From the NCBI GenBank assembly GCA_003152275.1, contig PLZU01000009.1, forward strand, positions 14,655 through 78,654: a stretch of 64,000 nt of DNA, read 5' to 3'. Below are positions 8,684 to 18,861 of the stretch, one piece after another (the stretch's first letter is position 1; each line of letters starts with the position of its first letter). The notes under the pieces were generated by a model. It was not told the origin of the DNA, did not search any database, and saw only the letters and a program-made list of their open reading frames with translations. This DNA is from Actinomycetota bacterium (GTDB lineage: Bacteria; Actinomycetota; Thermoleophilia; Gaiellales; Gaiellaceae). The position numbers and the translations under genes were made by a program.

Positions 8684-8988
8684 TCGCGCGGGTGTGGCGC
8701 GGCGCGACGCGCGCGGAGGACGGCGAGGAGTACGCCGCGTACGTCGAGGAATCGGGCACGGGGCCGGCGCGCAAGCTACCGGGCTCGCGCGGGACGCTCG
8801 TGCTGCGCCGCACGAGCGGGGATCTGGCCGAATTCGAGACGATCATCCTGTTCGACTCGCTCGACAACGTGCGCGCGTTCGCCGGCGACGACCTCGAGGC
8901 GGCGGTGTTCTTCCCGGAGGACGACCGCTATCTCGTCGAGCGCGACCTCTGGGTCAGCCATCACGAGGTCGACGTCCATATGGTGTAG
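8680..8988 (+). CDS. Small ABM-like (dimeric alpha/beta-barrel) protein
   Basis: The 102-aa protein reads VIARVWRGATRAEDGEEYAAY, then TLVLRRTSGDLAEFETII and FFPEDDRYLVERDLWVSHHEV. It resembles the antibiotic biosynthesis monooxygenase (ABM)-like ferredoxin fold, in which small dimers bind lipophilic substrates. The GTG overlaps the cupin stop. Its own stop is 3 nt before the tRNA-Sec gene, so the tRNA could be transcribed as the tail of this operon. Confidence 0.7.
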   Translation: MIARVWRGATRAEDGEEYAAYVEESGTGPARKLPGSRGTLVLRRTSGDLAEFETIILFDSLDNVRAFAGDDLEAAVFFPEDDRYLVERDLWVSHHEVDVHMV

Positions 8989-8991
8989 AGC

Positions 8992-9083
8992 GGAGCGGCC
9001 GGGCCTGGTGGCCCAACCGGTCTTCAAAACCGGTACGCCGGCGTAACCCGCCGGTAGGTCAGTTCGACTCTGGCGCCGCTCCG
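8992..9083 (+). tRNA. selC: Selenocysteine tRNA, anticodon UCA
   Basis: The 92-nt cloverleaf has the bacterial tRNA-Sec hallmarks. The acceptor stem is 8 bp (8992-8999 with 9075-9082) with discriminator G 9083. The D stem is GGGCC/GGCCC (9001-9005 with 9010-9014) with a 4-nt loop. The anticodon stem pairs 9016-9020 with 9030-9034 and the anticodon TCA is at 9024-9026, reading UGA. The long variable arm has a 6-bp stem (9038-9043 with 9049-9054). The T stem is 5 bp (9058-9062 with 9070-9074), giving the 8+5 arrangement. CCA is not encoded. No other SelABD gene or recognisable selenoprotein is in the window; fdhD/mobA at 40-41 kb fit a formate dehydrogenase elsewhere. The 3' part of this gene recurs four times downstream. 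Confidence 0.95.
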
Positions 9084-9102
9084 TCGCGCAGGATTCAGTG
9101 CT

Positions 9103-9930
9103 CTACGGCAACGAGTTGGCGGCGCGTTGCTTCGCATGTTCCGCAAATGCAGTCGTCGCCTCCACACTGCCTGCTCTCGGAGGGTCGTTGGGATCCCACC
9201 CGAGCGCCCGGTCATCGAGCACTTGCTGGATCAGGTCGCGCCACGCCGGGTTCAGCGCATCCTGCGCCCACTCGAGCGACGCCTGCTTCGACGCGACCTC
9301 GGCGGTATCGAGCGTGTACAGCATTCGGCACAGGGTCGTCACGGCGTAGCGCTGCGCCCACGCAATGTCGAAACTGATCCAGCTGAACAGGTCTGGCAGG
9401 AAGCTCTCGATCAGTTGTCGCATCCTGCGACGGAGCGCGTCTGCGGGAACCTCGGCGACGAGCTCACGTGGGTCGGGACCGGCGAGCGTGATCCCGCACT
9501 CGCGGAGCGTCCATCTCACGTCTTCGGTGTTGCAGTGGGTTGACCACTGCATCTCCCGCCAGCCGTGGTCGATGTAGAGCCACTGCTTGTCGAGAGCCGC
9601 GAGTGTCTCAAGCTCCGCCCTCGGCGCGTACGAACCTTCGAGATGGTGCGTCCAGTGCCCGGAACGGGTTGGAATCTCGTCGTGGATCTGACGAAGCGCT
9701 CGTTCTTGCTCCGCCGAGACCTGAGCCTCAGTGACAACCAGAAAGTCGCAGTCGCTGTAGAGATCACCGGCTCCGAGCGCGAAGGAGCCGGTCAGGTAAG
9801 CACCGAGAAAGTTGTCCGCGAGGATCGACTCGACGCGCTCCACGAGTTCCCGCAACAGCTCGTTCAGTTCTGGAAAGACCGTCGGCGGCGACGCCGCTCC
9901 CCATGCAGCAGACACCGCTGCATTCAACAT
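9103..9930 (-). CDS. DUF4111/AadA-like nucleotidyltransferase
   Basis: The 275-aa protein has a nucleotidyltransferase core GAYLTGSFALGAGDLYSDCD followed by FLVVTE: the Gly-Ser and Asp-x-Asp type metal site, here Ser-Asp-Cys-Asp. A helical C-terminal domain (SWISFDIAWAQRYAVTTLCR, then ASLEWAQDALNPAWRDLIQQ) is like that of aminoglycoside adenylyltransferases and DUF4111 proteins. It may modify an aminoglycoside or a related small molecule. The ATG at 9930 gives a normal N-terminus; the frame is open further to 10089, where it would run into the displaced tRNA fragment, and ATG 9960 is an alternative. It is the only gene of the first segment. Confidence 0.78.
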   Translation of the reverse strand: MLNAAVSAAWGAASPPTVFPELNELLRELVERVESILADNFLGAYLTGSFALGAGDLYSDCDFLVVTEAQVSAEQERALRQIHDEIPTRSGHWTHHLEGSYAPRAELETLAALDKQWLYIDHGWREMQWSTHCNTEDVRWTLRECGITLAGPDPRELVAEVPADALRRRMRQLIESFLPDLFSWISFDIAWAQRYAVTTLCRMLYTLDTAEVASKQASLEWAQDALNPAWRDLIQQVLDDRALGWDPNDPPRAGSVEATTAFAEHAKQRAANSLP

Positions 9931-10072
9931 CACCCATTCCGATGCCCGCCCGGGGGACATTCCCGAACTCAATGTGGTGAGTACTGCGGACCGGCGCAAA
10001 TCTTGGCGCGCACCCTCCCGCTCGAACACGCAACCCCGGCATCCGTGCGGCTTTGCGCGAATCACAATGCCT

Positions 10073-10137
10073 GTCTTCAAAACCGTCACGCCGGCCTAAC
10101 CGGCCGGTAGGTCAGTTCGACTCTGGCGCCGCTCCGT
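10073..10137 (+). repeat. tRNA-Sec 3' fragment, copy 2 (diverged)
   Basis: These 65 bp align without gaps to tRNA-Sec 9020-9084, from the anticodon loop to one base past the discriminator. There are four differences. Two lie in the 3' anticodon stem (GT to TC). The other two are a compensating pair in the variable arm (stem CCGGCC/GGCCGG instead of CCGGCG/CGCCGG), so the hairpin is kept. Confidence 0.92.
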
Positions 10138-10233
10138 TTCGTCGAGCACTTGCGCTGTACCCATTTGGGGGATGCAGCCCCGGGACTTCCGAAGATCATT
10201 CGAGGGAATTCGTCCCCCTCGGAGAAGGGTCAC

Positions 10234-10326
10234 ATGAAACTGCGGCTTACACGTTCGCTCTATGTACTCGCTGTGATTGTGTCGTTCGCCCTCGCAGCTG
10301 GTGCGGGCAAGAAATTCGGCGGATAA
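10234..10326 (+). CDS. Possible 30-aa membrane/secreted peptide
   Basis: ATG 10234 follows a good Shine-Dalgarno GGAGAAGGG (10221-10229). The peptide starts MKLRLTRSLYVLAVIVSFAL and ends AAGAGKKFGG: a positively charged start, one hydrophobic helix and a short polar tail, like a signal peptide or a small toxin/holin-type peptide. It lies at the left end of the second segment, 64 nt before the HD-GYP gene. No family recognised; it could be chance. Confidence 0.45.
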   Translation: MKLRLTRSLYVLAVIVSFALAAGAGKKFGG

Positions 10327-10390
10327 CGCGGGCGTAGCTTGTGCGCGCGTGTGAAGTCTGCTCGCGCGCGCGCGCGCCGATAAACACAGC

Positions 10391-12580
10391 ATGAGGGTCT
10401 CAGCCAAAGCTTTCGAGCGTTGCCTCGGCGCGCTGTTCTGGCTTCCGCTCGTGGTGGCCCTCTTTGTCGAGCGGTCGGCTCTCCCCTCGCTGGCCACGAT
10501 CGCGCCAATCCTCGCGCTCGCCGTGATCGGCGAAGAGCTGGTGGTGAATCAGCGGCAGCGCCCCGAAGGCGCGCTTCTTTCCTTCTCGGCGGTCGCTCAT
10601 GTCGCAGCCGTGTTCGTGCTCGGCCCACTCCCGGCGGGAGCGATCGCGGCTATCGGTGTTCTCGTTTCCGACGGGACCCGGCGCGAAGGGCGTCGATACC
10701 TGCTCGTCAACTCTGCGATGTTCGGCGGCTCGACCGTCCTTGCCGGCTATGTCTTCATCCTCGCCGGCGGACACCCGGGAGAGATCGGGACATCTACGTT
10801 GCCGGCGTTGGTCGCAGCTGTCGCGATGCGCTACCTCGTCACCTCGACGGTGTTTTCGCTTGGGACATCTCTGAGCTCGAAGGCGCCCTTCAGCGTGGTC
10901 TTCCGGGAAACAGTGGTCGAGGAGATCTCATCCGCCGCCCAGGAAGGCAGTCTCGGGATCCTGATCGCGTACTCGATCTCGAACCATCAGTGGATCGTGC
11001 TGCCCTTCCTACTGCCACTGTTCGCGGCGATCTACCGCTCGAGCGCAACCTACGAGCAACTAAAGGAAGAAACGGCTGCCGCGCTGGAAGCCGTCGCCGA
11101 AGTCGTCGACGAACGCGACCCCAGCACCGCGGAGCACAGTGAGCGCGTCGCACGCTGGGTCCGTCAGTTCACGGAAGCAATCGGTCTGCCATCGCGAGAG
11201 AGTGCGCGTCTGATTGCAGCCGCGCGGCTTCACGATCTCGGAAAGATCGGCGTCGACGTGCAGACGCTTGCGAAAACGGGTCGGCTCGACGCACGCGAGC
11301 TGGCCTCGATCCGCGGACACCCTCGTCTGTCGGCCCGCCTTCTTGCCCCGTTCCACTTCGCGCGTGAAATGTCTCGCTATGTCGAGCTCCATCACGAGCG
11401 ATTCGACGGACATGGGTACTACGGCGTGCCAGGCGAGGATGTACCAATCGAAGCTCATGTCCTGATTGCCGCAGACAGCCTCGACGCGATGACCTCCGCG
11501 CGGCCGTATCGCCCAGCCTTGTCTCTTGAAGAGGCAGCCGCAGAACTAAGGCACAAGGCAGGCAGCCATTTCCAGCCTGACGTCGCCGCGATCTTTGCCG
11601 CCATCGCTAGCGGCACGGCGGCCACGCACGTGCTCGAGGAGCATCAACTCGGCGCTTTGCGCAGCTCTTTCTCTCGTATCCCGGTCGCCTCCATTCCCGA
11701 TTTGCGGCCCGTGAGCTCACGGATCTTGGTGCTCTGCCTAGCGGTGATCTCCCTGCTCGTTTTCGGCGAAGACAGGATTCCGCTGGCGACACGCGCAGCG
11801 GTCGTCGGCGCGGCTGTCTGTGTCGGCGCCATTGCAGCCGTCAAGGCCGTTCTCGGTCTGAAACGCGAACGTTCAGCCCTACGCGCGCTCGACGCAGGCG
11901 CATCACCCGCATCGGTCCTCGCACACGCAGGGATGAACGGATGGCTTGCGGTGCTCGAAGTGGACGCCGACGGAGGCGGCTACGTCGCCCGGCCGATCGA
12001 TCGAACGGCCGTCGCCGGCAACGACCTGCGTGAGGCCTGCTCTGGCGCACATCGGCACGGGACCGCCGCATATCGAGCAGAGAGCGGGACATGGCTCGTC
12101 GTTCGTTCACGAGAAGCCTCCACCCGTGTCGCTGCCGGATTATCCCGCCGTCCCAACGCACGACAACTCCGCGTCCTACAAGCGCTGACCGATCGCCTCG
12201 CGGAAGCAACGATGCGTGACACCGAGGTTGAGACAGGTGACGCGATCGTCCAGGCGACGATGCGCGTCGAGCTCGGGATGTACGAACCTGTCCGGCGGCG
12301 AGCAGGGCAGCTCGTCGCGGAGCAGCTCGTTGACGAGGCAGAGCGCCGGCTCAACGCTCTCGCAGGTCTGGGCGGCTCCCTTGTTCGCAGCGGCGACGAC
12401 AATTTTGTCGTCTCCGTTTCCGTTCGAAGCGAAGACGCACTCAATCGGCTTTGCAAAGAGGTAGCTGCACAACTCGCACAGATCCCGCTCCCACGCGGCA
12501 CGATGCCGATCTCGCCGCGCCTGCGCGCCAGTGTCACGGAGAACGAGTCTGTCGTAACGCCACTCCAGGCGGTCGGATAG
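10391..12580 (+). CDS. Membrane HD-GYP protein with degenerate GGDEF tail
   Basis: This 729-aa protein has an N-terminal membrane sensor of six or more helices (residues about 10-215). An HD-GYP domain follows (about 225-410): H249 in HSERVARW, HDLGKIG at 281-287, HHERFDGHGYYG at 334-345 and ADSLDAMTSARPYRPALS at 361-378. The signature reads GYY instead of GYP; metal ligands look intact, so c-di-GMP hydrolysis is plausible but altered. Two more helices (about 443-490) lead to a C-terminal region that ends like a degenerate GGDEF domain, with SLVRSGDDNFVVSV where RxGGDEF would be; it cannot make c-di-GMP. The MFS fusion gene starts 1 nt after its stop, so the two are one operon. Confidence 0.88.
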   Translation: MRVSAKAFERCLGALFWLPLVVALFVERSALPSLATIAPILALAVIGEELVVNQRQRPEGALLSFSAVAHVAAVFVLGPLPAGAIAAIGVLVSDGTRREGRRYLLVNSAMFGGSTVLAGYVFILAGGHPGEIGTSTLPALVAAVAMRYLVTSTVFSLGTSLSSKAPFSVVFRETVVEEISSAAQEGSLGILIAYSISNHQWIVLPFLLPLFAAIYRSSATYEQLKEETAAALEAVAEVVDERDPSTAEHSERVARWVRQFTEAIGLPSRESARLIAAARLHDLGKIGVDVQTLAKTGRLDARELASIRGHPRLSARLLAPFHFAREMSRYVELHHERFDGHGYYGVPGEDVPIEAHVLIAADSLDAMTSARPYRPALSLEEAAAELRHKAGSHFQPDVAAIFAAIASGTAATHVLEEHQLGALRSSFSRIPVASIPDLRPVSSRILVLCLAVISLLVFGEDRIPLATRAAVVGAAVCVGAIAAVKAVLGLKRERSALRALDAGASPASVLAHAGMNGWLAVLEVDADGGGYVARPIDRTAVAGNDLREACSGAHRHGTAAYRAESGTWLVVRSREASTRVAAGLSRRPNARQLRVLQALTDRLAEATMRDTEVETGDAIVQATMRVELGMYEPVRRRAGQLVAEQLVDEAERRLNALAGLGGSLVRSGDDNFVVSVSVRSEDALNRLCKEVAAQLAQIPLPRGTMPISPRLRASVTENESVVTPLQAVG

Positions 12581-12581
12581 C

Positions 12582-14393
12582 GTGATTCTGGGAGTTGCAC
12601 TTCTCGCCGGCGTGGTCCTTGCTTGGCTTCTCGGCGCGAAACCATCGCGACTCGTGGATCTGAATCTCCGCGGAGGCCCGTTTGTCTTCGCCGCACTCGC
12701 GATCCAGTTGTGCCTCTTCACTCGCATTCACGGTCATGTGCCCGGCCAGCTCTTCTTGCCTCTCCAGGTAGCGACGTATTCCCTCTTGGCGGTCTTCCTC
12801 ATCGTCAACATGCGGGCTGGTCGCGCGCTCATCCTTGTCGTTCTCGGACTCGTCGCGAATCTGCTGCCGATCTTGACTAACGGCGGCAGAATGCCCATTT
12901 CCCTTTCAGCCTGGACGGCGACCGGGACGCCGCCCGAACTGATCCAACGGACTGGCCACTACGCGAACAACGTCCTCGCCGGCCCGCACAGCCACTTCGC
13001 ATGGCTCGGCGACATCTTCGCGCTCCCGGCGAGTGTCCCCTATGCGAGCGCACTCTCCGTCGGCGACGTGCTGATGACGTTCGGACTTACCGCGTTCGTC
13101 TATCGCGCCTGCATCCGACCCCGGGCTGGCGCACTGCCCCTGCGCATCCTTGAGCCTCTGCGGTTCGACTCGTTCCGAAGCCTGATCATTGGACGAACCG
13201 TCTCCAAGCTCGGCGACTGGTTGACCATGGCCGCAATCGTGACCTGGATCTTCCAGCGCACACACTCAACGTTCGCTGTCAGCGCGTTTCTCGTCGCTCG
13301 CATCGCCGGGATCATCGGAGGCGGCGTGATCGCGGCCCCGCTCCTCAACCGCATCCCCCAGTTCCGAACCCTCTCAACCGTCGAAGCTCTGAGAGGCATC
13401 CTGATGCTGGTGACGCTCGCCTTCGCGAAGCACGGCCTCGTCGCACCCGTCATCGGCCTCGTGTGCCTGTCTTCCATGCTCGGCGCCGCCACGAACCCGA
13501 GCGCGTCGAGCCTCGTGCCGGAACTCCTGCCCGATCGTCTCCTGCATCAGGGCAACGCCCTCCACGGCGTCACCCGAAACGTCGTCATGGTCGCCGGGAC
13601 CGGTCTCGGGGCTCTGTCGATGGGCACCCTAGGGATCGCGCCGTCGCTCCTCATCGACCTGGGAACCTTCGCACTCGCGGCACTGCTCTATTTGCACCTC
13701 AGCGCCAGCGCCGACCCCGTCGGCCCCGAAACGCCGGATGCAGAACCTGCGCAGTCGCGTCGCCAGCTCTTGCGGGGCATCCTGAGTAACCGCGTGATCT
13801 TCGGCCTCACGGCCTCGTTCACCCTCGTGACTGGCGCCATCGGACTCTTGAACGCCTCCCTCCCCCAGTTCCTCGCGCGACAGGTCGCACAACCACAGGC
13901 CTATGGCTACGCCCTGGCCGCCATCGGACTGGGGTTGATGTGCGGAGAGTTCCTGACCGGCTTCATCGAACGCGAGAGCGTCGCTCGCCGATCCGTTGCG
14001 CTGGCTTTCTTTGTCTCCGGCGTCGTCGTCTTCCTCGCCTCCCAATCGACCGTCGCGGCGACGATCTACCTTCTTCTCTTCCTACTCGGGGCAAGCGACG
14101 GGAGCACAGAAGTCGTCTACGACACACTGTTCCAACGGCAACTCCCGCGCCAAAACACCGCCGGCACCTTCGCCCTCGCGTCAGCGATCCAGAACGGCGG
14201 CATGTTGGTCGGCCTCCTCGCCGCTCCGATCGTGCTCCAGACCGGAGACTCGACGACCGCCTTTCGCTTGTCCGCGGTCGGCTGTGTCGTAGGCACGATG
14301 ATTGCCGCCCTTGCGCTCTTCCGCCGACCTCGAGTCGACGAGAATGCGCTGGGCGAAGAGTCTGCCGGCCGCCGTGAACTCTCGCCGGCGTAA
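12582..14393 (+). CDS. DUF5317-MFS transporter fusion
   Basis: Residues about 1-175 form a DUF5317-like membrane domain with five helices and the blocks NGGRMPISLSAW and LGDIFALP, then SVGDVLMTFG. Residues about 190-590 are a 12-helix MFS transporter (FDSFRSLIIGRTVSKLGDWL, then ASDGSTEVVYDTLFQRQLPR), of the macrolide-efflux-like MFS_3 type. DUF5317 proteins are normally separate and about 180 aa. The GTG at 12582 follows the HD-GYP stop by one base, so the exported substrate may be linked to the signal sensed by that protein. The substrate is unknown. Confidence 0.82.
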   Translation: MILGVALLAGVVLAWLLGAKPSRLVDLNLRGGPFVFAALAIQLCLFTRIHGHVPGQLFLPLQVATYSLLAVFLIVNMRAGRALILVVLGLVANLLPILTNGGRMPISLSAWTATGTPPELIQRTGHYANNVLAGPHSHFAWLGDIFALPASVPYASALSVGDVLMTFGLTAFVYRACIRPRAGALPLRILEPLRFDSFRSLIIGRTVSKLGDWLTMAAIVTWIFQRTHSTFAVSAFLVARIAGIIGGGVIAAPLLNRIPQFRTLSTVEALRGILMLVTLAFAKHGLVAPVIGLVCLSSMLGAATNPSASSLVPELLPDRLLHQGNALHGVTRNVVMVAGTGLGALSMGTLGIAPSLLIDLGTFALAALLYLHLSASADPVGPETPDAEPAQSRRQLLRGILSNRVIFGLTASFTLVTGAIGLLNASLPQFLARQVAQPQAYGYALAAIGLGLMCGEFLTGFIERESVARRSVALAFFVSGVVVFLASQSTVAATIYLLLFLLGASDGSTEVVYDTLFQRQLPRQNTAGTFALASAIQNGGMLVGLLAAPIVLQTGDSTTAFRLSAVGCVVGTMIAALALFRRPRVDENALGEESAGRRELSPA

Positions 14394-14477
14394 GTCTGGC
14401 ACTTCGCTTAAAAGAGAATCCGGCTCACGACCGAAGTCTGACGCGGCGACGTCCGTCCGATCTATAACTGGCGCGTA

Positions 14478-14542
14478 GTCTTCAAAACCGGTACGCCGGC
14501 GTAACCCGCCGGTAGGTCAGTTCGACTCTGGCGCCGCTCCGT
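14478..14542 (+). repeat. tRNA-Sec 3' fragment, copy 3 (identical)
   Basis: These 65 bp are identical to tRNA-Sec 9020-9084. The copy begins at the anticodon stem/loop and ends one base after the discriminator. It marks the right end of the HD-GYP/MFS segment. It lacks the 5' half and cannot be a functional tRNA. Confidence 0.95.
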
Positions 14543-14651
14543 TACGTCGAATCCGGCTCCTTCGTTGGGAGCGGAGCTTCAGGCATCCATTGGAAGAAAC
14601 AGCCGTCCGAGCCCGTCTAGAGGGGACTGCAACGACGAAGAAGGAAGACTG

Positions 14652-14759
14652 ATGGAGACTCGCAACAAGATCGCAGCGAACACCAACGAAGACATCGTCG
14701 AGGGTGCCCGCAAGCGGCTCGCCAGCAACAGCAGCGAGCACGTCCTCTCCGACAACTGA
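14652..14759 (+). CDS. Possible 35-aa peptide before the LuxR regulator
   Basis: ATG 14652 follows the Shine-Dalgarno-like AAGGAAG (14641-14647). The peptide begins METRNKIAANTNEDIVEGAR and ends SSEHVLSDN: hydrophilic, charged and without cysteine. It lies in a segment of only 0.6 kb whose other gene is a LuxR-type DNA-binding protein, so it could be a leader, a partner or a signal. Unrecognised. Confidence 0.45.
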   Translation: METRNKIAANTNEDIVEGARKRLASNSSEHVLSDN

Positions 14760-14805
14760 TTTGAGCTCCAGGCCGCCTGGCGGATACCTGGGTAAGGGAA
14801 ACAGA

Positions 14806-15108
14806 GTGCTGATCCCCCTCAACCGCCGCTTGCGCGGCGACTTGCATCTCGCGCGGAAGGTAGCCGCCCAGGTCGCCGCTACGGCCGAACGCTTCAACCT
14901 CTCAGCTCGCGAGGCGGAAGTTCTTGCCCTGCTCATCTTGGGCGACAGCAACGCCGAGATCGCCGAGCAGCTCCTCGTCTCTCATAAAACCGTCAAGAAC
15001 CACCTCGGCGCGATCTATGAGCGGATGGGCGTCCGCAACCGGGTCGAGGCGGCGACGGTCACGCTGCTGCGCGAGCTACTTGACACCTCCATTTCATCGG
15101 CCGCGTAG
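14806..15108 (+). CDS. Single-domain LuxR/GerE-type regulator
   Basis: The 100-aa protein has a full LuxR-type helix-turn-helix: FNLSAREAEVLALLILGDSN at about 38-57, then AEIAEQLLVSHKTVKNHLGA and IYERMGVRNRVEAATVT. No receiver or ligand-binding domain is present, so it works without phosphorylation or is controlled by a partner. GTG 14806 has AAGGGA at 14795-14800. TTG 14761 in the same frame is an alternative start directly after the upstream peptide. It is the main gene of the 0.6-kb segment. Confidence 0.75.
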   Translation: MLIPLNRRLRGDLHLARKVAAQVAATAERFNLSAREAEVLALLILGDSNAEIAEQLLVSHKTVKNHLGAIYERMGVRNRVEAATVTLLRELLDTSISSAA

Positions 15109-15118
15109 CCGCACCGCA

Positions 15119-15136
15119 ACTCTGGCGCCGCTCCGT
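15119..15136 (+). repeat. tRNA-Sec 3' fragment, copy 4 (18 bp)
   Basis: ACTCTGGCGCCGCTCCGT matches tRNA-Sec 9067-9084: the end of the T loop, the 3' T stem, the 3' acceptor strand and the base after the discriminator. It starts 11 bp after the LuxR stop codon and ends at the same base as the other copies. Confidence 0.85.
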
Positions 15137-15152
15137 TAGGCGCGATCCAGCT

Positions 15153-15815
15153 TTACGGCCTCTTTGGTTGGACGACACCGGCGTCGTAGGCGACGATGAC
15201 GGCTTGCACGCGGTCGCGAACGCCGAGCTTTCGTAAGAGGTTCGAGACGTGGGTCTTCACGGTGGTCTCGCTGACGACGAGCGTCGACGCGATTTCGGCG
15301 TTGGAGAGACCGCCTGCGAGAAGTCGAAGGGTTTCCGATTCGCGGTCGGTTAGCGATCCAACCGCAGCGGTATCCGCTGGGCGCGCGGCAATCGTGGTGG
15401 AGAATCGCTCGAGCAGTCGCTCGACGGCGGTCGGCCCGAGCAGTGCGTTCCCGCTTGCCACGACGCGTATCGCGTCGACGAGCTCGCCGGGGCGCACGTC
15501 TTTGAGCAGAAAGCCGCTGGCACCGGCTCGGACGGCTCCGTACACGTACTCGTCGAGATCGAAGGTTGTGAGCACGAGGATTCGCGTGGCGCTGCCGGAG
15601 GCGACGATTCGCTTCGTGGCCTCGATGCCGTCGAGGTTCGGCATTCTGATGTCGAGCAGGATCACGTCCGGTTCGAGCTCTTGGACGAGAGCAACGGCCT
15701 GCTCGCCGTCTTCCGCTTCGCCGACGACCTCGAGGTCGGGCCTTCCCTCGACGATCAGGCGAAAGCCGCTGCGAACGAGCGCCTGATCATCGGCGATCAC
15801 GACTCGAATGGTCAC
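15153..15815 (-). CDS. NarL/LuxR-family response regulator
   Basis: This 220-aa protein has a receiver domain (MTIRVVIADDQALVRSGF; phospho-Asp55 in VILLDIRMPNLDG; Thr in LTTFDLDEYV; Lys in FLLKDVRPGEL) and a C-terminal LuxR helix-turn-helix (LTDRESETLRLLAGGLSNAE at about 150-170, then VSETTVKTHVSNLLRKLGV). It overlaps the histidine kinase gene by 4 nt (translational coupling) and is last in the leftward ABC-kinase operon. It likely controls that exporter operon. Confidence 0.93.
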   Translation of the reverse strand: MTIRVVIADDQALVRSGFRLIVEGRPDLEVVGEAEDGEQAVALVQELEPDVILLDIRMPNLDGIEATKRIVASGSATRILVLTTFDLDEYVYGAVRAGASGFLLKDVRPGELVDAIRVVASGNALLGPTAVERLLERFSTTIAARPADTAAVGSLTDRESETLRLLAGGLSNAEIASTLVVSETTVKTHVSNLLRKLGVRDRVQAVIVAYDAGVVQPKRP

Positions 15816-16933
15816 GTGGCCTTGTCGAGCGGGATCTCCGCCGCGACGCGGTAGCCGCCGCCCGGTGCGGGGCCGGCTGCGAGGACGCCGCCGAGGAGCG
15901 CGACGCGCTCGCGCATTCCGACCAGCCCGTTTCCGCCCGTACGGTCCCCGGTTTCCGCGTTGCCGGCTCCGTCGTCGCGGATCTCGAGCTCGAGTCTGTC
16001 GCTGTAGCGGATCCGGACGCGTACGTGCTCCGCGTCGGCGTGCTTGAGACTGTTCGTCAGGGCTTCTTGAACGATCCTGAACGCGGAGAGCTCGACCGCT
16101 GCCGACAGTGGTTGCTGCTGACCTTCGATCTCCAGGGAGACGTCGAGGCCGGTTGCGCGAACCTGGTCGATCAGCCGGTCGAGTTGGTCGAGTCCCGGTT
16201 GTGGCTCGTACTCGGCGGAATCGTGGAAGATCCCGAGTACGCGGCGGAGGTCGGCGAGCGCGGCGCGGGCTGCGGAGTCGATCGCGCGGATCGGCTCGCG
16301 CGCTCGGGCGGCGTCGAGCTCGAAGGCGTCGTCGGCCGCGCCGGCCTGGACGACGATGACGCTGAGCGCGTGCGCGATGACGTCGTGCAGCTCGCGGGCG
16401 ATGCGTGCCTGCTCTTCCGCGGCTGCGCGCCTCGCTTCGCTTTCTCGCTCCCGCTCGAGCCGGTCCGCCTTCTCCTCGATCTCGCGGACGTAGGCGCGGC
16501 GCGAGCCGATGCTGTCTCCGAGCAGCGCTGCTGCGATCAGAAAGACGACGCGGGCGGCGCCGGCGCCAAACTCGATCCCGCCGACGGAGAGGACGGCGAT
16601 CGCGACCGCGAGAATCGCGCCGATTCCAACCGCTCGCTCGACACGTTGTTCACGAACAGACGTGAGCGTGTAAAGGGCGACGCCGAGCTGGAACGGTAGA
16701 ACCCAAACGCCTAGAGCGATCGTTGCGAGCACGACGGATGTCACGACGATGACCACACCGACCGGGAAGCGGCGCCGAAAAAGTAGAGGCGCTGCTTCGG
16801 CGATGCTGAGCACGATCGCCGTCGCCTCCGCGTGCTCGTTTCTGATCGCGGCGCCGATCCCGAGGAAGACAAGCAGCCCGACGATCGAGACGTCGACGAG
16901 CCGCGGGTGACGGTGGAGCCAGCTCCAGATCAT
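15812..16933 (-). CDS. DesK-type sensor histidine kinase
   Basis: The 373-aa protein has four or five N-terminal membrane helices (to residue about 140), a coiled linker, a HisKA_3 dimerisation domain with the phospho-acceptor H183 in ARELHDVIAHALSVIVVQAG, and a HATPase_c domain with N-box RIVQEALTNSLKHA, IRDDGAG and GGNGLVGMRERV. No extracytoplasmic domain is evident, so the signal is likely membrane-borne or the ABC transporter itself. It is followed by its response regulator. Confidence 0.92.
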   Translation of the reverse strand: MIWSWLHRHPRLVDVSIVGLLVFLGIGAAIRNEHAEATAIVLSIAEAAPLLFRRRFPVGVVIVVTSVVLATIALGVWVLPFQLGVALYTLTSVREQRVERAVGIGAILAVAIAVLSVGGIEFGAGAARVVFLIAAALLGDSIGSRRAYVREIEEKADRLERERESEARRAAAEEQARIARELHDVIAHALSVIVVQAGAADDAFELDAARAREPIRAIDSAARAALADLRRVLGIFHDSAEYEPQPGLDQLDRLIDQVRATGLDVSLEIEGQQQPLSAAVELSAFRIVQEALTNSLKHADAEHVRVRIRYSDRLELEIRDDGAGNAETGDRTGGNGLVGMRERVALLGGVLAAGPAPGGGYRVAAEIPLDKAT

Positions 16934-16978
16934 CGAGGCTCCACCGTAACCCGCGTCGCTGTTGTATGCAGTCCGCCG

Positions 16979-17809
16979 CTAGGTGTCGCGGTGCACGAGC
17001 AACACCGCGGCGACAGCGACCGCCACTGCGCAGTAGCCGAGCATGAGCAGCCCGCCCCCGAGCGGCGAGAGCGAATGCGCCCCATGATGCAGGGAAAACA
17101 GCTGCCGCCCCGCGTCACTTGGCAAGTACTTGCTGATCGCGTTGTTCCAGTTCGTCGGCAGCACGTTCATTAGCGGTGGCAGGACGAAGAAGACCCCCGC
17201 AAACGTCGCGATGCCGCCGGCCGTGCTCCGCACGATCGAACCGATACCGAGCGCGAAGATGCCTACGAGGGTCACGAAGAGGGCGCCACCAAGCAGCGAC
17301 CGCGCAACTCCCGGATCCCCGAAGGAGATCTGCAGGATGTGATGTCTCGAGAGAATCGCTTGGCTTGCGAAGAACGCGATCAGCACCAACGGGATCATCA
17401 AAACGAACGACACGGTCCCAAAGACCGCGAGCTTCGCCCACAGAACAGGAAGCCGCTTGGGGACCGCGATCAGCGAGGAGCGGATCATTCCGGTCGAGTA
17501 CTCGCCGGTGATCACGAGCACGCCGAGGACGGCGATGGCGAGTTGCGCGACGTTGACGCCGGCAAGCGCGATGTCGAGCGGATGCCGACCGGCCCGATCG
17601 CCCGCCGACATGTGCGACCAACGCGACGCGGTCACGACGGCGAACAGGATCGGGAAGGCGATCGTGAGCAGGCTCCCGACTCCAAGCGACCAGCGCGTAG
17701 AGCGGAGCGAGACAAACTTCGTCCACTCCGACAGCACCACCCGAGCCTGAGTGACTCGCCCCCGCTCGGTGAGACGTGGGATCGAGACGGATACCGTTGC
17801 GTTGCTCAT
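16979..17809 (-). CDS. ABC-2 type exporter permease
   Basis: The 276-aa protein has a polar start, then six hydrophobic segments (VGSLLTIAFPILFAVVTASR, AQLAIAVLGVLVITGEYSTG, GTVSFVLMIPLVLIAFFAS, GALFVTLVGIFALGIGSIV and others). GEYSTGMIRSSL is typical of BcrB/NatB-like ABC-2 permeases. It pairs with the ATPase gene, whose stop it overlaps by 4 nt. Probably exports an antibiotic, peptide or lipid. Confidence 0.87.
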   Translation of the reverse strand: MSNATVSVSIPRLTERGRVTQARVVLSEWTKFVSLRSTRWSLGVGSLLTIAFPILFAVVTASRWSHMSAGDRAGRHPLDIALAGVNVAQLAIAVLGVLVITGEYSTGMIRSSLIAVPKRLPVLWAKLAVFGTVSFVLMIPLVLIAFFASQAILSRHHILQISFGDPGVARSLLGGALFVTLVGIFALGIGSIVRSTAGGIATFAGVFFVLPPLMNVLPTNWNNAISKYLPSDAGRQLFSLHHGAHSLSPLGGGLLMLGYCAVAVAVAAVLLVHRDT

Positions 17810-18744
17810 GCCGCCAGCTCCTCGCGCTCAGTGACGCCAGACTCGACCGGCTTGAACTCCACCTCGTCGCGCGTCAACTCCATGAATGCCTCCTCCAACG
17901 ACGCCTGAACCGGCGTCAACTCGTGCAGAACGATCTTGTGCGAAGCGGCGATCTCGCCAATCTGCTCCGCCGTCAACCCTTCCACCTCGATCACGCCCGA
18001 CTCGCTGCTCGCCACCGAGACATGAGGCCCAAGCACAAGCTCGCGCAAGCGAGTCGCTTCGGGCGAGCGCACCCGAACCAGTGCACCCGACGCCTTCTGC
18101 ACGAACTCGTCGACGCTCATGTCCGCGATCAGCCTGCCGCGCCCGATCACGATCAAATGATCGGCAGTGAGCGCCATCTCGCTCATCAGATGCGACGAGA
18201 CGAACACAGTCCGTCCCTCGGCCGCCAGCTGCTTCAGCAGGTTACGGATCCAGTGGACGCCTTCTGGGTCGAGCCCGTTCACCGGCTCGTCAAGCATCAC
18301 CGTCGCCGGATCGCCCAGCAAGGCCGTCGCGATCCCGAGCCGCTGGCCCATTCCGAGGGAAAACTGCCCCGCACGTTTCCGCGCCACCTCGTGGAGGCCG
18401 ACGAGGTCGATCAACTCGTTCACGCGGCGGCGGGGAATGCCCTGCGTCTGCGCGAGCGCGAGCAGATGGTTGTAGGCCGATCGGCCCGTATGCACCGAAC
18501 GCGCCTCGAGCAGCGCCCCGACCTCATGCAGCGGCGACGCGTGGTCACGGTAATGCTTCCCGTTGACACGCACATCACCCGCCGTCGGAGCATCCAACCC
18601 GAGAATCAGCCGCATCGTCGTCGACTTCCCAGAACCGTTCGGCCCCAGAAAGCCAGTCACGATGCCCGGACGAACCGTGAACGAGATGTCGTTCACCGCC
18701 CGCTTCTCACCGTAGTCCTTCGTTAGTTTCGTGGCTTCGATCAT
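17806..18744 (-). CDS. ABC exporter ATP-binding protein (BcrA/NatA-like)
   Basis: The 312-aa protein has Walker A GFLGPNGSGKSTTMRL, signature FSLGMGQRLGIATALLGDP, Walker B TVMLDEPVNGLDPEG and the switch His in FVSSHLMSEMA; the C-terminal about 90 residues are the usual DrrA/BcrA-type extension. ATG 18744 is chosen because the family begins MIEATKLTKDYG and TACGGT lies 6 nt upstream; an ATG 66 nt further up is less likely. It is first in the operon ATPase-permease-kinase-regulator, the standard arrangement of antimicrobial-peptide or bacitracin detoxification modules. Confidence 0.9.
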   Translation of the reverse strand: MIEATKLTKDYGEKRAVNDISFTVRPGIVTGFLGPNGSGKSTTMRLILGLDAPTAGDVRVNGKHYRDHASPLHEVGALLEARSVHTGRSAYNHLLALAQTQGIPRRRVNELIDLVGLHEVARKRAGQFSLGMGQRLGIATALLGDPATVMLDEPVNGLDPEGVHWIRNLLKQLAAEGRTVFVSSHLMSEMALTADHLIVIGRGRLIADMSVDEFVQKASGALVRVRSPEATRLRELVLGPHVSVASSESGVIEVEGLTAEQIGEIAASHKIVLHELTPVQASLEEAFMELTRDEVEFKPVESGVTEREELAA

Positions 18745-18750
18745 GATCTG

Positions 18751-18756
18751 ACCGTA
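18751..18756 (-). promoter_or_regulatory. Leaderless -10 element of the ABC operon
   Basis: TACGGT on the minus strand, 6 nt before the ATG at 18744. It lies inside the segment, so the operon brings its own promoter. Confidence 0.4.
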
Positions 18757-18831
18757 GCCACGGATCACCGCCCGCGCCTCGGCCGTCAGAACGAACTTTG
18801 TCTCCTCCAAAGGTAGGAACCTCCGCGCCGC

Positions 18832-18861
18832 TAGGTCAGTTCGACTCTGGCGCCGCTCCGT
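18832..18861 (+). repeat. tRNA-Sec 3' fragment, copy 5 (30 bp)
   Basis: These 30 bp are identical to tRNA-Sec 9055-9084, from just before the T arm to one base after the discriminator. It marks the right end of the ABC/two-component segment and of the whole array. Confidence 0.92.

What the first reader, a model, noticed from the sequence alone, without database searches (positions are those of the whole stretch)
12582..14393. DUF5317 fused to an MFS transporter
A DUF5317-like membrane domain is joined to a complete 12-helix MFS transporter, and the gene is coupled to an HD-GYP protein by one base. The fusion suggests that DUF5317 senses, gates or feeds the transported compound.
Basis: inference. 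Interest (0 to 1): 0.5.

Follow-up and report, generated by a model that had tools for sequence, protein, structure and literature searches.

The report
DUF5317-MFS partner of a MASE9-like sensor
A membrane domain of unknown function (DUF5317) is joined to a transporter-like protein and sits beside a membrane signalling enzyme, and comparison with hundreds of genomes indicates that DUF5317 is the genomic companion of one sensor domain (MASE9), so the fused protein is most likely a transporter-coupled input to bacterial signalling.

Summary
Window 12582-14393 encodes one 603-aa protein: DUF5317 (27-174, Pfam E 4e-27), then a complete 12-helix MFS unit (190-590), one base after an HD-GYP gene. 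It is not an assembly artefact: other genomes of the order and at least six loci outside it carry the fusion, and the MFS halves fall into two distant clades (one-clade tree rejected, p-AU 1e-81), so the fusion arose at least twice.

The interpretation changes. DUF5317's constant companion is not HD-GYP but the membrane sensor domain MASE9 (or divergent relatives), whose output varies: HD-GYP, GGDEF-EAL or histidine kinase. By Pfam alone, 48/144 (Actinomycetota) and 59/88 (Bacillota) DUF5317 loci have MASE9 within 5 kb, against fewer than one expected. All 16 MFS-fused loci neighbour a MASE9-like protein. One Bacillota gene fuses MASE9, HD-GYP and DUF5317.

Best explanation: DUF5317 docks on the MASE9-like domain; the fused MFS unit couples a solute to it and thereby to the HD-GYP output (analogous to UhpC-UhpB). 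The partnership is well supported; direction of signalling, ligand and transport are inferred. The pair sits on a ~24-kb island at tRNA-Sec. No paper mentioning DUF5317 or MASE9 was found in the library searched.

The parts
12582..14393 (+). DUF5317-MFS fusion gene (603 aa)
12582..13115 (+). DUF5317 domain, residues 1-178: five predicted transmembrane helices; conserved loop residues 100-159 predicted extracytoplasmic (NGGxMP, LGDxFAxP, SxGD)
   Evidence: Pfam E 4e-27; AlphaFold2 pLDDT 93; invariant residues Q42 N76 G89 N93 N100 M104 P105 D144 P149 S159 G161 D162 in 36 homologues; positive-inside charge pattern
13149..14351 (+). MFS unit, residues about 190-590
10391..12580 (+). partner: MASE9-like membrane domain + HD-GYP + degenerate GGDEF-like C-terminus (729 aa)
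10391..11068 (+). MASE9-like N-terminal membrane domain of the partner, residues 1-226
   Evidence: profile-profile match to MASE9-bearing proteins of other genomes, probability 98.3%, E 1.9e-14, 208 columns; own iterative profile hits residues 15-250, E 6e-47; Pfam MASE9 itself does not hit this protein
11090..11584 (+). HD-GYP domain (residues 234-398), with HSERV, HDLGK and HHERFDGHGYY motifs
12230..12485 (+). degenerate GGDEF-like region (RSGDDNF in place of RxGGDEF)
   Evidence: weak Pfam GGDEF_2/GGDEF matches, below cut-off; clearer GGDEF-like pattern in relatives (GEDRF)
8988..9082 (+). tRNA-Sec gene at the left edge of the island that carries the pair
10073..10137 (+). direct repeat of the tRNA-Sec 3' end, left border of the pair
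14478..14542 (+). direct repeat of the tRNA-Sec 3' end, right border of the pair

Best explanation
DUF5317 is a five-helix membrane partner of MASE9-like sensor domains. In this locus it carries an MFS unit on its C-terminus and partners the MASE9-like domain of the HD-GYP protein encoded one base upstream. The MFS unit binds or moves a small solute; that state is passed through DUF5317, whose conserved loop is predicted to face outward, to the MASE9-like domain, which sets the activity of the HD-GYP (c-di-GMP phosphodiesterase-type) output. It works like the MFS sensor UhpC with the kinase UhpB, but with a different adaptor domain and a second-messenger output. Shown here: the architecture, its conservation, its repeated origin, and the genomic coupling of DUF5317 to MASE9-like proteins with three output types. 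Inferred: physical contact, direction of signalling, solute, and catalytic activity.
For: (1) DUF5317-MASE9 linkage by Pfam matches alone: 48 of 144 DUF5317 loci in 397 Actinomycetota genomes have MASE9 within 5 kb, about 0.6 expected; co-occurrence p 7e-14. In 250 Bacillota genomes 59 of 88, about 0.3 expected; p 7e-27. (2) With a more sensitive profile: order 23/25 loci, the two others being cut short before the N-terminus; phylum sample 44/60; named set 23/25; no hit to reversed sequences. (3) Outputs differ (HD-GYP, GGDEF-EAL, histidine kinase) while the membrane domain stays. (4) A single 600-aa Bacillota ORF joins MASE9, HD-GYP and DUF5317. (5) The window HD-GYP N-terminus is MASE9-like, and the HD-GYP beside a family-level fusion homologue (L062) passes Pfam's MASE9 cut-off. 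(6) All 16 loci with a DUF5317-MFS fusion, two of them broken or cut, neighbour a MASE9-like protein (fusion status). (7) The MFS was joined at least twice from different MFS clades, p-AU 1e-81. (8) The joint model is confident as a whole, pTM 0.91. Precedents: MASE1 of DgcE is the docking site of its activating partner RdcA (PMC6510439); UhpC is an MFS protein that senses glucose-6-phosphate and activates UhpB (PMC7607045).
Against: No physical interaction was tested and no complex could be modelled. Conservation of neighbourhood does not show direction: the signalling protein could control the transporter. Sixteen of 60 phylum-sample loci show no MASE9-like neighbour, some but not all because of short contigs. 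The MASE9-like profile was iterated on the same loci, so it is less independent than the Pfam counts, and 32 of its 120 hits overlap an output domain by more than 20 residues. Pfam MASE9 does not itself hit the window protein. One relative (G133) keeps the HD-GYP-DUF5317 pair without any MFS, so the MFS is dispensable. The HD-GYP motif is HHERFDGHGYY rather than GYP, so phosphodiesterase activity is uncertain.
Confidence: 0.55

Rival explanations
1. Reverse direction: the MASE9-like/HD-GYP protein senses something itself and, through DUF5317, gates the fused MFS exporter. DUF5317 is then the regulatory domain of a transporter.
For: The MFS unit resembles exporters (TIGR00900 and MFS_3); fold and length are complete, so transport is plausible; the same neighbourhood data fit both directions.
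Against: Most DUF5317 copies, and nearly all in Bacillota, have no transporter attached yet keep the MASE9 neighbour, so regulating a transporter cannot be the basic job of DUF5317. The outputs (GGDEF-EAL, histidine kinase) usually act on cytoplasmic targets.
Confidence: 0.22
2. DUF5317 is an enzyme or channel acting on a membrane-borne or extracellular compound; MASE9 proteins sense that compound, and the fused MFS carries it across the membrane (substrate feeding).
For: Twelve invariant residues, among them Q42, N76, N93, N100, D144, S159 and D162, lie in helices and the outward loop, as in a ligand or active site; the fold has no match among solved structures.
Against: No biosynthetic or catabolic gene was seen to recur beside it in the loci examined; the recurrent neighbours are signalling proteins.
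Confidence: 0.13
3. The MFS was joined to DUF5317 by simple read-through in a mobile module and has no coupled function.
For: The pair lies on a genomic island with lower third-position GC; L060 and L009 show that either part can be missing.
Against: The fusion is kept at 34-46% identity in several genera and arose at least twice from different MFS clades.
Confidence: 0.08
4. Assembly artefact.
For: The genome is a draft of 105 contigs.
Against: Independent genomes carry the same single frame.
Confidence: 0.01

Closest known systems
DUF5317 family (PF17248)
   Same: Full-length domain match, all invariant residues kept.
   Different: Fused to an MFS unit; most members stand in short frames without a partner domain.
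MASE9 domain (PF20972) signalling proteins
   Same: The partner's N-terminus is homologous by profile comparison and stands before a c-di-GMP-type output.
   Different: Too divergent for Pfam's MASE9 model to hit this protein.
UhpC-UhpB (MFS sensor plus membrane-domain kinase)
   Same: An MFS protein beside a signalling protein with a large multi-helix membrane domain; UhpC senses external glucose-6-phosphate and activates UhpB (PMC7607045).
   Different: No adaptor domain is fused to UhpC as far as I know; output is a kinase rather than HD-GYP; the MFS part here is of the TIGR00900/MFS_3 type. Homology was not tested.
DgcE MASE1 with RdcA/RdcB
   Same: A MASE-type membrane domain serves as docking site for an activating partner (PMC6510439).
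   Different: RdcA is a dynamin-like GTPase, not an MFS or DUF5317 protein; MASE1 is a different domain.
TIGR00900 / MFS_3 exporters
   Same: Complete 12-helix MFS fold and sequence-family match.
   Different: Far below the TIGR00900 cut-off (112 of 320 bits); motif A aspartate is asparagine in the window protein.

Membership tests
DUF5317 (PF17248) | Score above the Pfam gathering cut-off over the full model | tested here: met
   95.5 bits against 25, model positions 2-151 of 151
Major facilitator superfamily | Pfam MFS model above cut-off and 12-helix fold | tested here: met
   MFS_1 74 bits against 33.4; model and PDB matches
Major facilitator superfamily | Motif A between helices 2 and 3 (GxxxDRxxRR) | tested here: inconclusive
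   APLLNRIPQFR in the window: D to N and a degenerate basic end; most relatives keep D
TIGR00900 H+ antiporter subfamily | Score above NCBIfam cut-off | tested here: not met
   111.7 bits against 319.6
MASE9 (PF20972), partner protein | Pfam MASE9 match above cut-off | tested here: not met
   no match in the window protein; a homologous HD-GYP in L062 passes with 25.2 against 24.3 bits
MASE9-like, partner protein | Homology to MASE9 domains by profile comparison | tested here: met
   hhalign probability 98.3%, E 1.9e-14 over 208 columns
HD-GYP phosphodiesterases | HD_5 match and HD ... HHExxDGxGYP signature | tested here: inconclusive
   HD_5 E 3e-28; HDLGK and HHERFDGHGY present but Y replaces P of GYP
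HD-GYP phosphodiesterases | Hydrolysis of c-di-GMP | not testable with these tools
   needs an enzyme assay; the genome does hold 9 GGDEF and 9 HD_5 matches
UhpC-type MFS sensors | MFS protein that binds an external solute and activates a membrane signalling partner | not testable with these tools
   analogy only

The most novel reading that the evidence does not exclude
DUF5317 is the second subunit of a widespread two-part membrane receptor (MASE9 + DUF5317) with interchangeable cytoplasmic outputs, and evolution has repeatedly attached a transporter to it, giving a transport-coupled receptor that reports solute binding or flux to c-di-GMP or kinase signalling.
Probability: 0.4. Interest if true: 0.75.

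Novelty: new variant of a known kind. Interest (0 to 1): 0.55.

Why it matters
DUF5317 had no mention in the searched literature and its predicted fold has no match among solved structures. Tying it to one sensor domain across two phyla and three output types gives a testable role: a partner subunit of MASE9 receptors. The repeated MFS fusion suggests what such receptors may respond to (a transported solute) and offers a natural construct in which input and relay are physically joined.

Tried and rejected
Assembly fusion: rejected, independent genomes share the frame. 'DUF5317 belongs to HD-GYP': rejected as too narrow once GGDEF-EAL and kinase neighbours appeared. A single origin of the fusion: rejected by the AU test. 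Loss of transport function judged from motif A: the D to N change is seen in the window protein but not in most relatives, so inconclusive. Structural relatives of DUF5317: none in PDB or among viral models. Solved structures by sequence for the MFS part or the MASE9-like part: none meaningful. tRNA-flanked insertion in the closest relatives: a tRNA-Ala lies right next to the pair in G070 (and the contig of G061 ends in the same tRNA), and a tRNA-Trp lies about 440 bp before the HD-GYP in G067, but no flanking tRNA repeats were found there. Papers on MASE9 or DUF5317: none.

Full report
OBSERVATION. The open frame at 12582-14393 on the + strand starts with GTG and encodes 603 residues without a stop. 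Pfam finds DUF5317 at residues 27-174 (E 4e-27) and MFS_1/MFS_3 over 190-594; NCBIfam's best match is TIGR00900, below that model's cut-off. The upstream gene, 10391-12580, is an HD-GYP protein; its stop codon and the GTG are one base apart. AlphaFold2 gives a confident model of the whole protein (pLDDT 92, pTM 0.91) with the 12 long helices of an MFS transporter after the DUF5317 part, and that part matches complete solved MFS transporters.

NOT AN ARTEFACT. Full-length homologues occur in two genomes of another family of the order (46% identity) and in four further genomes (34-37%). A seventh relative of the same kind (G107) was recognised from its DUF5317 hit, and in G067 the contig ends just after the junction. 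The HD-GYP gene is tightly upstream in the closest ones; in G026 and G039 it is divergent and in G045 it is downstream. One relative, G133, has the same HD-GYP subtype followed by a stand-alone DUF5317 and no MFS. A scan of named genomes found further fusions in Thermoleophilia, Acidimicrobiales and unclassified Actinomycetota MAGs (domain).

WHAT DUF5317 KEEPS COMPANY WITH. In the window's order all 25 DUF5317 copies have an HD-GYP domain encoded beside them. Across the phylum the neighbours change: Pfam scans of ten neighbours found GGDEF-EAL proteins, histidine kinases and an HD protein, and six of them also matched the membrane sensor domain MASE9 at E below 0.01, three of these above the curated cut-off. 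I therefore searched MASE9 in the same 397 genomes as DUF5317. Of 144 DUF5317 loci, 48 have a MASE9 hit within 5 kb, where about 0.6 would be expected by chance. In 250 Bacillota genomes the figure is 59 of 88 against 0.3. Pfam's MASE9 model is weak on divergent members. A profile iterated from MASE9-bearing neighbours finds a MASE9-like neighbour at 23 of 25 loci of the order (the other two are cut before the N-terminus), 44 of 60 of the phylum sample and 23 of 25 of the named set (which overlaps the others); it hits no reversed sequence, though some hits extend into output domains. A profile-profile comparison made separately aligns the N-termini of the window's HD-GYP group with those of MASE9-type proteins over 208 columns (probability 98.3%, E 1.9e-14).

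FUSIONS AS EVIDENCE. A Bacillota genome (G655) has MASE9, HD-GYP and DUF5317 in one 600-residue protein. The MFS-fused DUF5317s, 16 loci including one frameshifted and one cut by a contig end, all neighbour a MASE9-like protein, whatever the output. The MFS halves form two well separated clades, and holding them together is rejected (p-AU 1e-81); the DUF5317 tree also needs more than one change of state. So different transporters were joined to DUF5317 at least twice. A stand-alone MFS nested in the order's fused clade (G018) still lies convergent to a MASE9-like/HD-GYP locus whose frame is broken.

ANATOMY. The DUF5317 model (pLDDT 93) has five membrane helices and a loop of about 60 residues between helices 4 and 5. 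Lysine and arginine are about four times denser in the loops assigned to the inside than in those assigned to the outside (0.21-0.22 against 0.05 per residue), so the conserved loop (N100-G-G-x-M-P, L-G-D144, S159-x-G-D162) probably faces outward. Twelve residues are invariant among 36 diverse homologues. No solved or viral structure matches the fold. The partner protein carries HSERV, HDLGK and HHERFDGHGYY motifs and a degenerate GGDEF-like end. The motif A aspartate of the MFS part is asparagine in the window protein and kept in most relatives, so transport activity cannot be judged.

MECHANISM. The most economical reading is a two-part membrane receptor, MASE9-like domain plus DUF5317, with exchangeable outputs; here the DUF5317 part has gained a transporter that supplies the solute signal. 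Precedents are the docking of an activating partner on the MASE1 domain of DgcE (PMC6510439) and the MFS sensor UhpC that activates UhpB (PMC7607045). Steps shown: architecture, conservation, repeated fusion, genomic coupling. Steps inferred: contact, direction, ligand, enzyme activity.

CONTEXT. The pair lies exactly between two ~65-bp direct repeats of the 3' end of a tRNA-Sec gene (8988-9082); four copies of that 3' end exist in the whole genome, all in this 10 kb on the same strand. In two genomes of the same genus the region after tRNA-Sec corresponds, within about 1.3 kb, to window 33485 onward, and in a third after about 4.4 kb. The pair is therefore on an island of roughly 24 kb. Third-position GC of the two genes (0.71, 0.79) is below that of three flanking genes (0.86-0.91). 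No integrase was found on this contig.

LIMITS. Genomes are mostly drafts; gene calls in relatives are mechanical ORFs; complexes could not be modelled; the chance expectation assumes uniform placement and an average genome size; the lists of hits were cut off at the weak end, so counts are lower bounds.

Noticed in passing
window 8988-18861: A tRNA-Sec gene (8988-9082) followed by three further copies of its 3' end, ending near 10137, 14542 and 18861, all on + and found nowhere else in the genome. They divide the region into three segments: an aminoglycoside adenylyltransferase-like gene, the HD-GYP/DUF5317-MFS pair, and a LuxR/two-component/ABC set. This looks like stacked insertions at tRNA-Sec.
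   Followed up: partly
window 9083 to about 33480: Island of about 24 kb absent from the same site in two same-genus genomes (L224, L226; a third, L227, has about 4 kb there), judged by protein synteny from window 33485 onward. No integrase hit on this contig.
   Followed up: partly
window 9103-10089 (-): AadA-like aminoglycoside adenylyltransferase family protein (AadA_C and NTP_transf_2 domains), the only large gene of the first tRNA-bounded segment.
   Followed up: no
L056 5743-6300 (-) and L057 58-600 (-): The fusion homologues in G070 and G061 carry an extra C-terminal stretch of about 170-190 residues without a Pfam match; by eye it recalls a thioredoxin/peroxiredoxin-like domain.
   Followed up: partly
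L210 1454-3256 (+): Single 600-aa Bacillota protein with MASE9, HD-GYP and DUF5317.
   Followed up: yes
L111, L112, L114, L115, L120, L124, L126, L137, L142, L148, L160: In several Actinomycetota families DUF5317 lies beside two tandem MASE9-like/HD-domain genes; in L126 one of the two has only a weak HD match. A paired arrangement not explained here.
   Followed up: no
L121, L146, L151, L153: In several genomes DUF5317 lies beside two MASE9-like histidine kinase genes or fragments.
   Followed up: no
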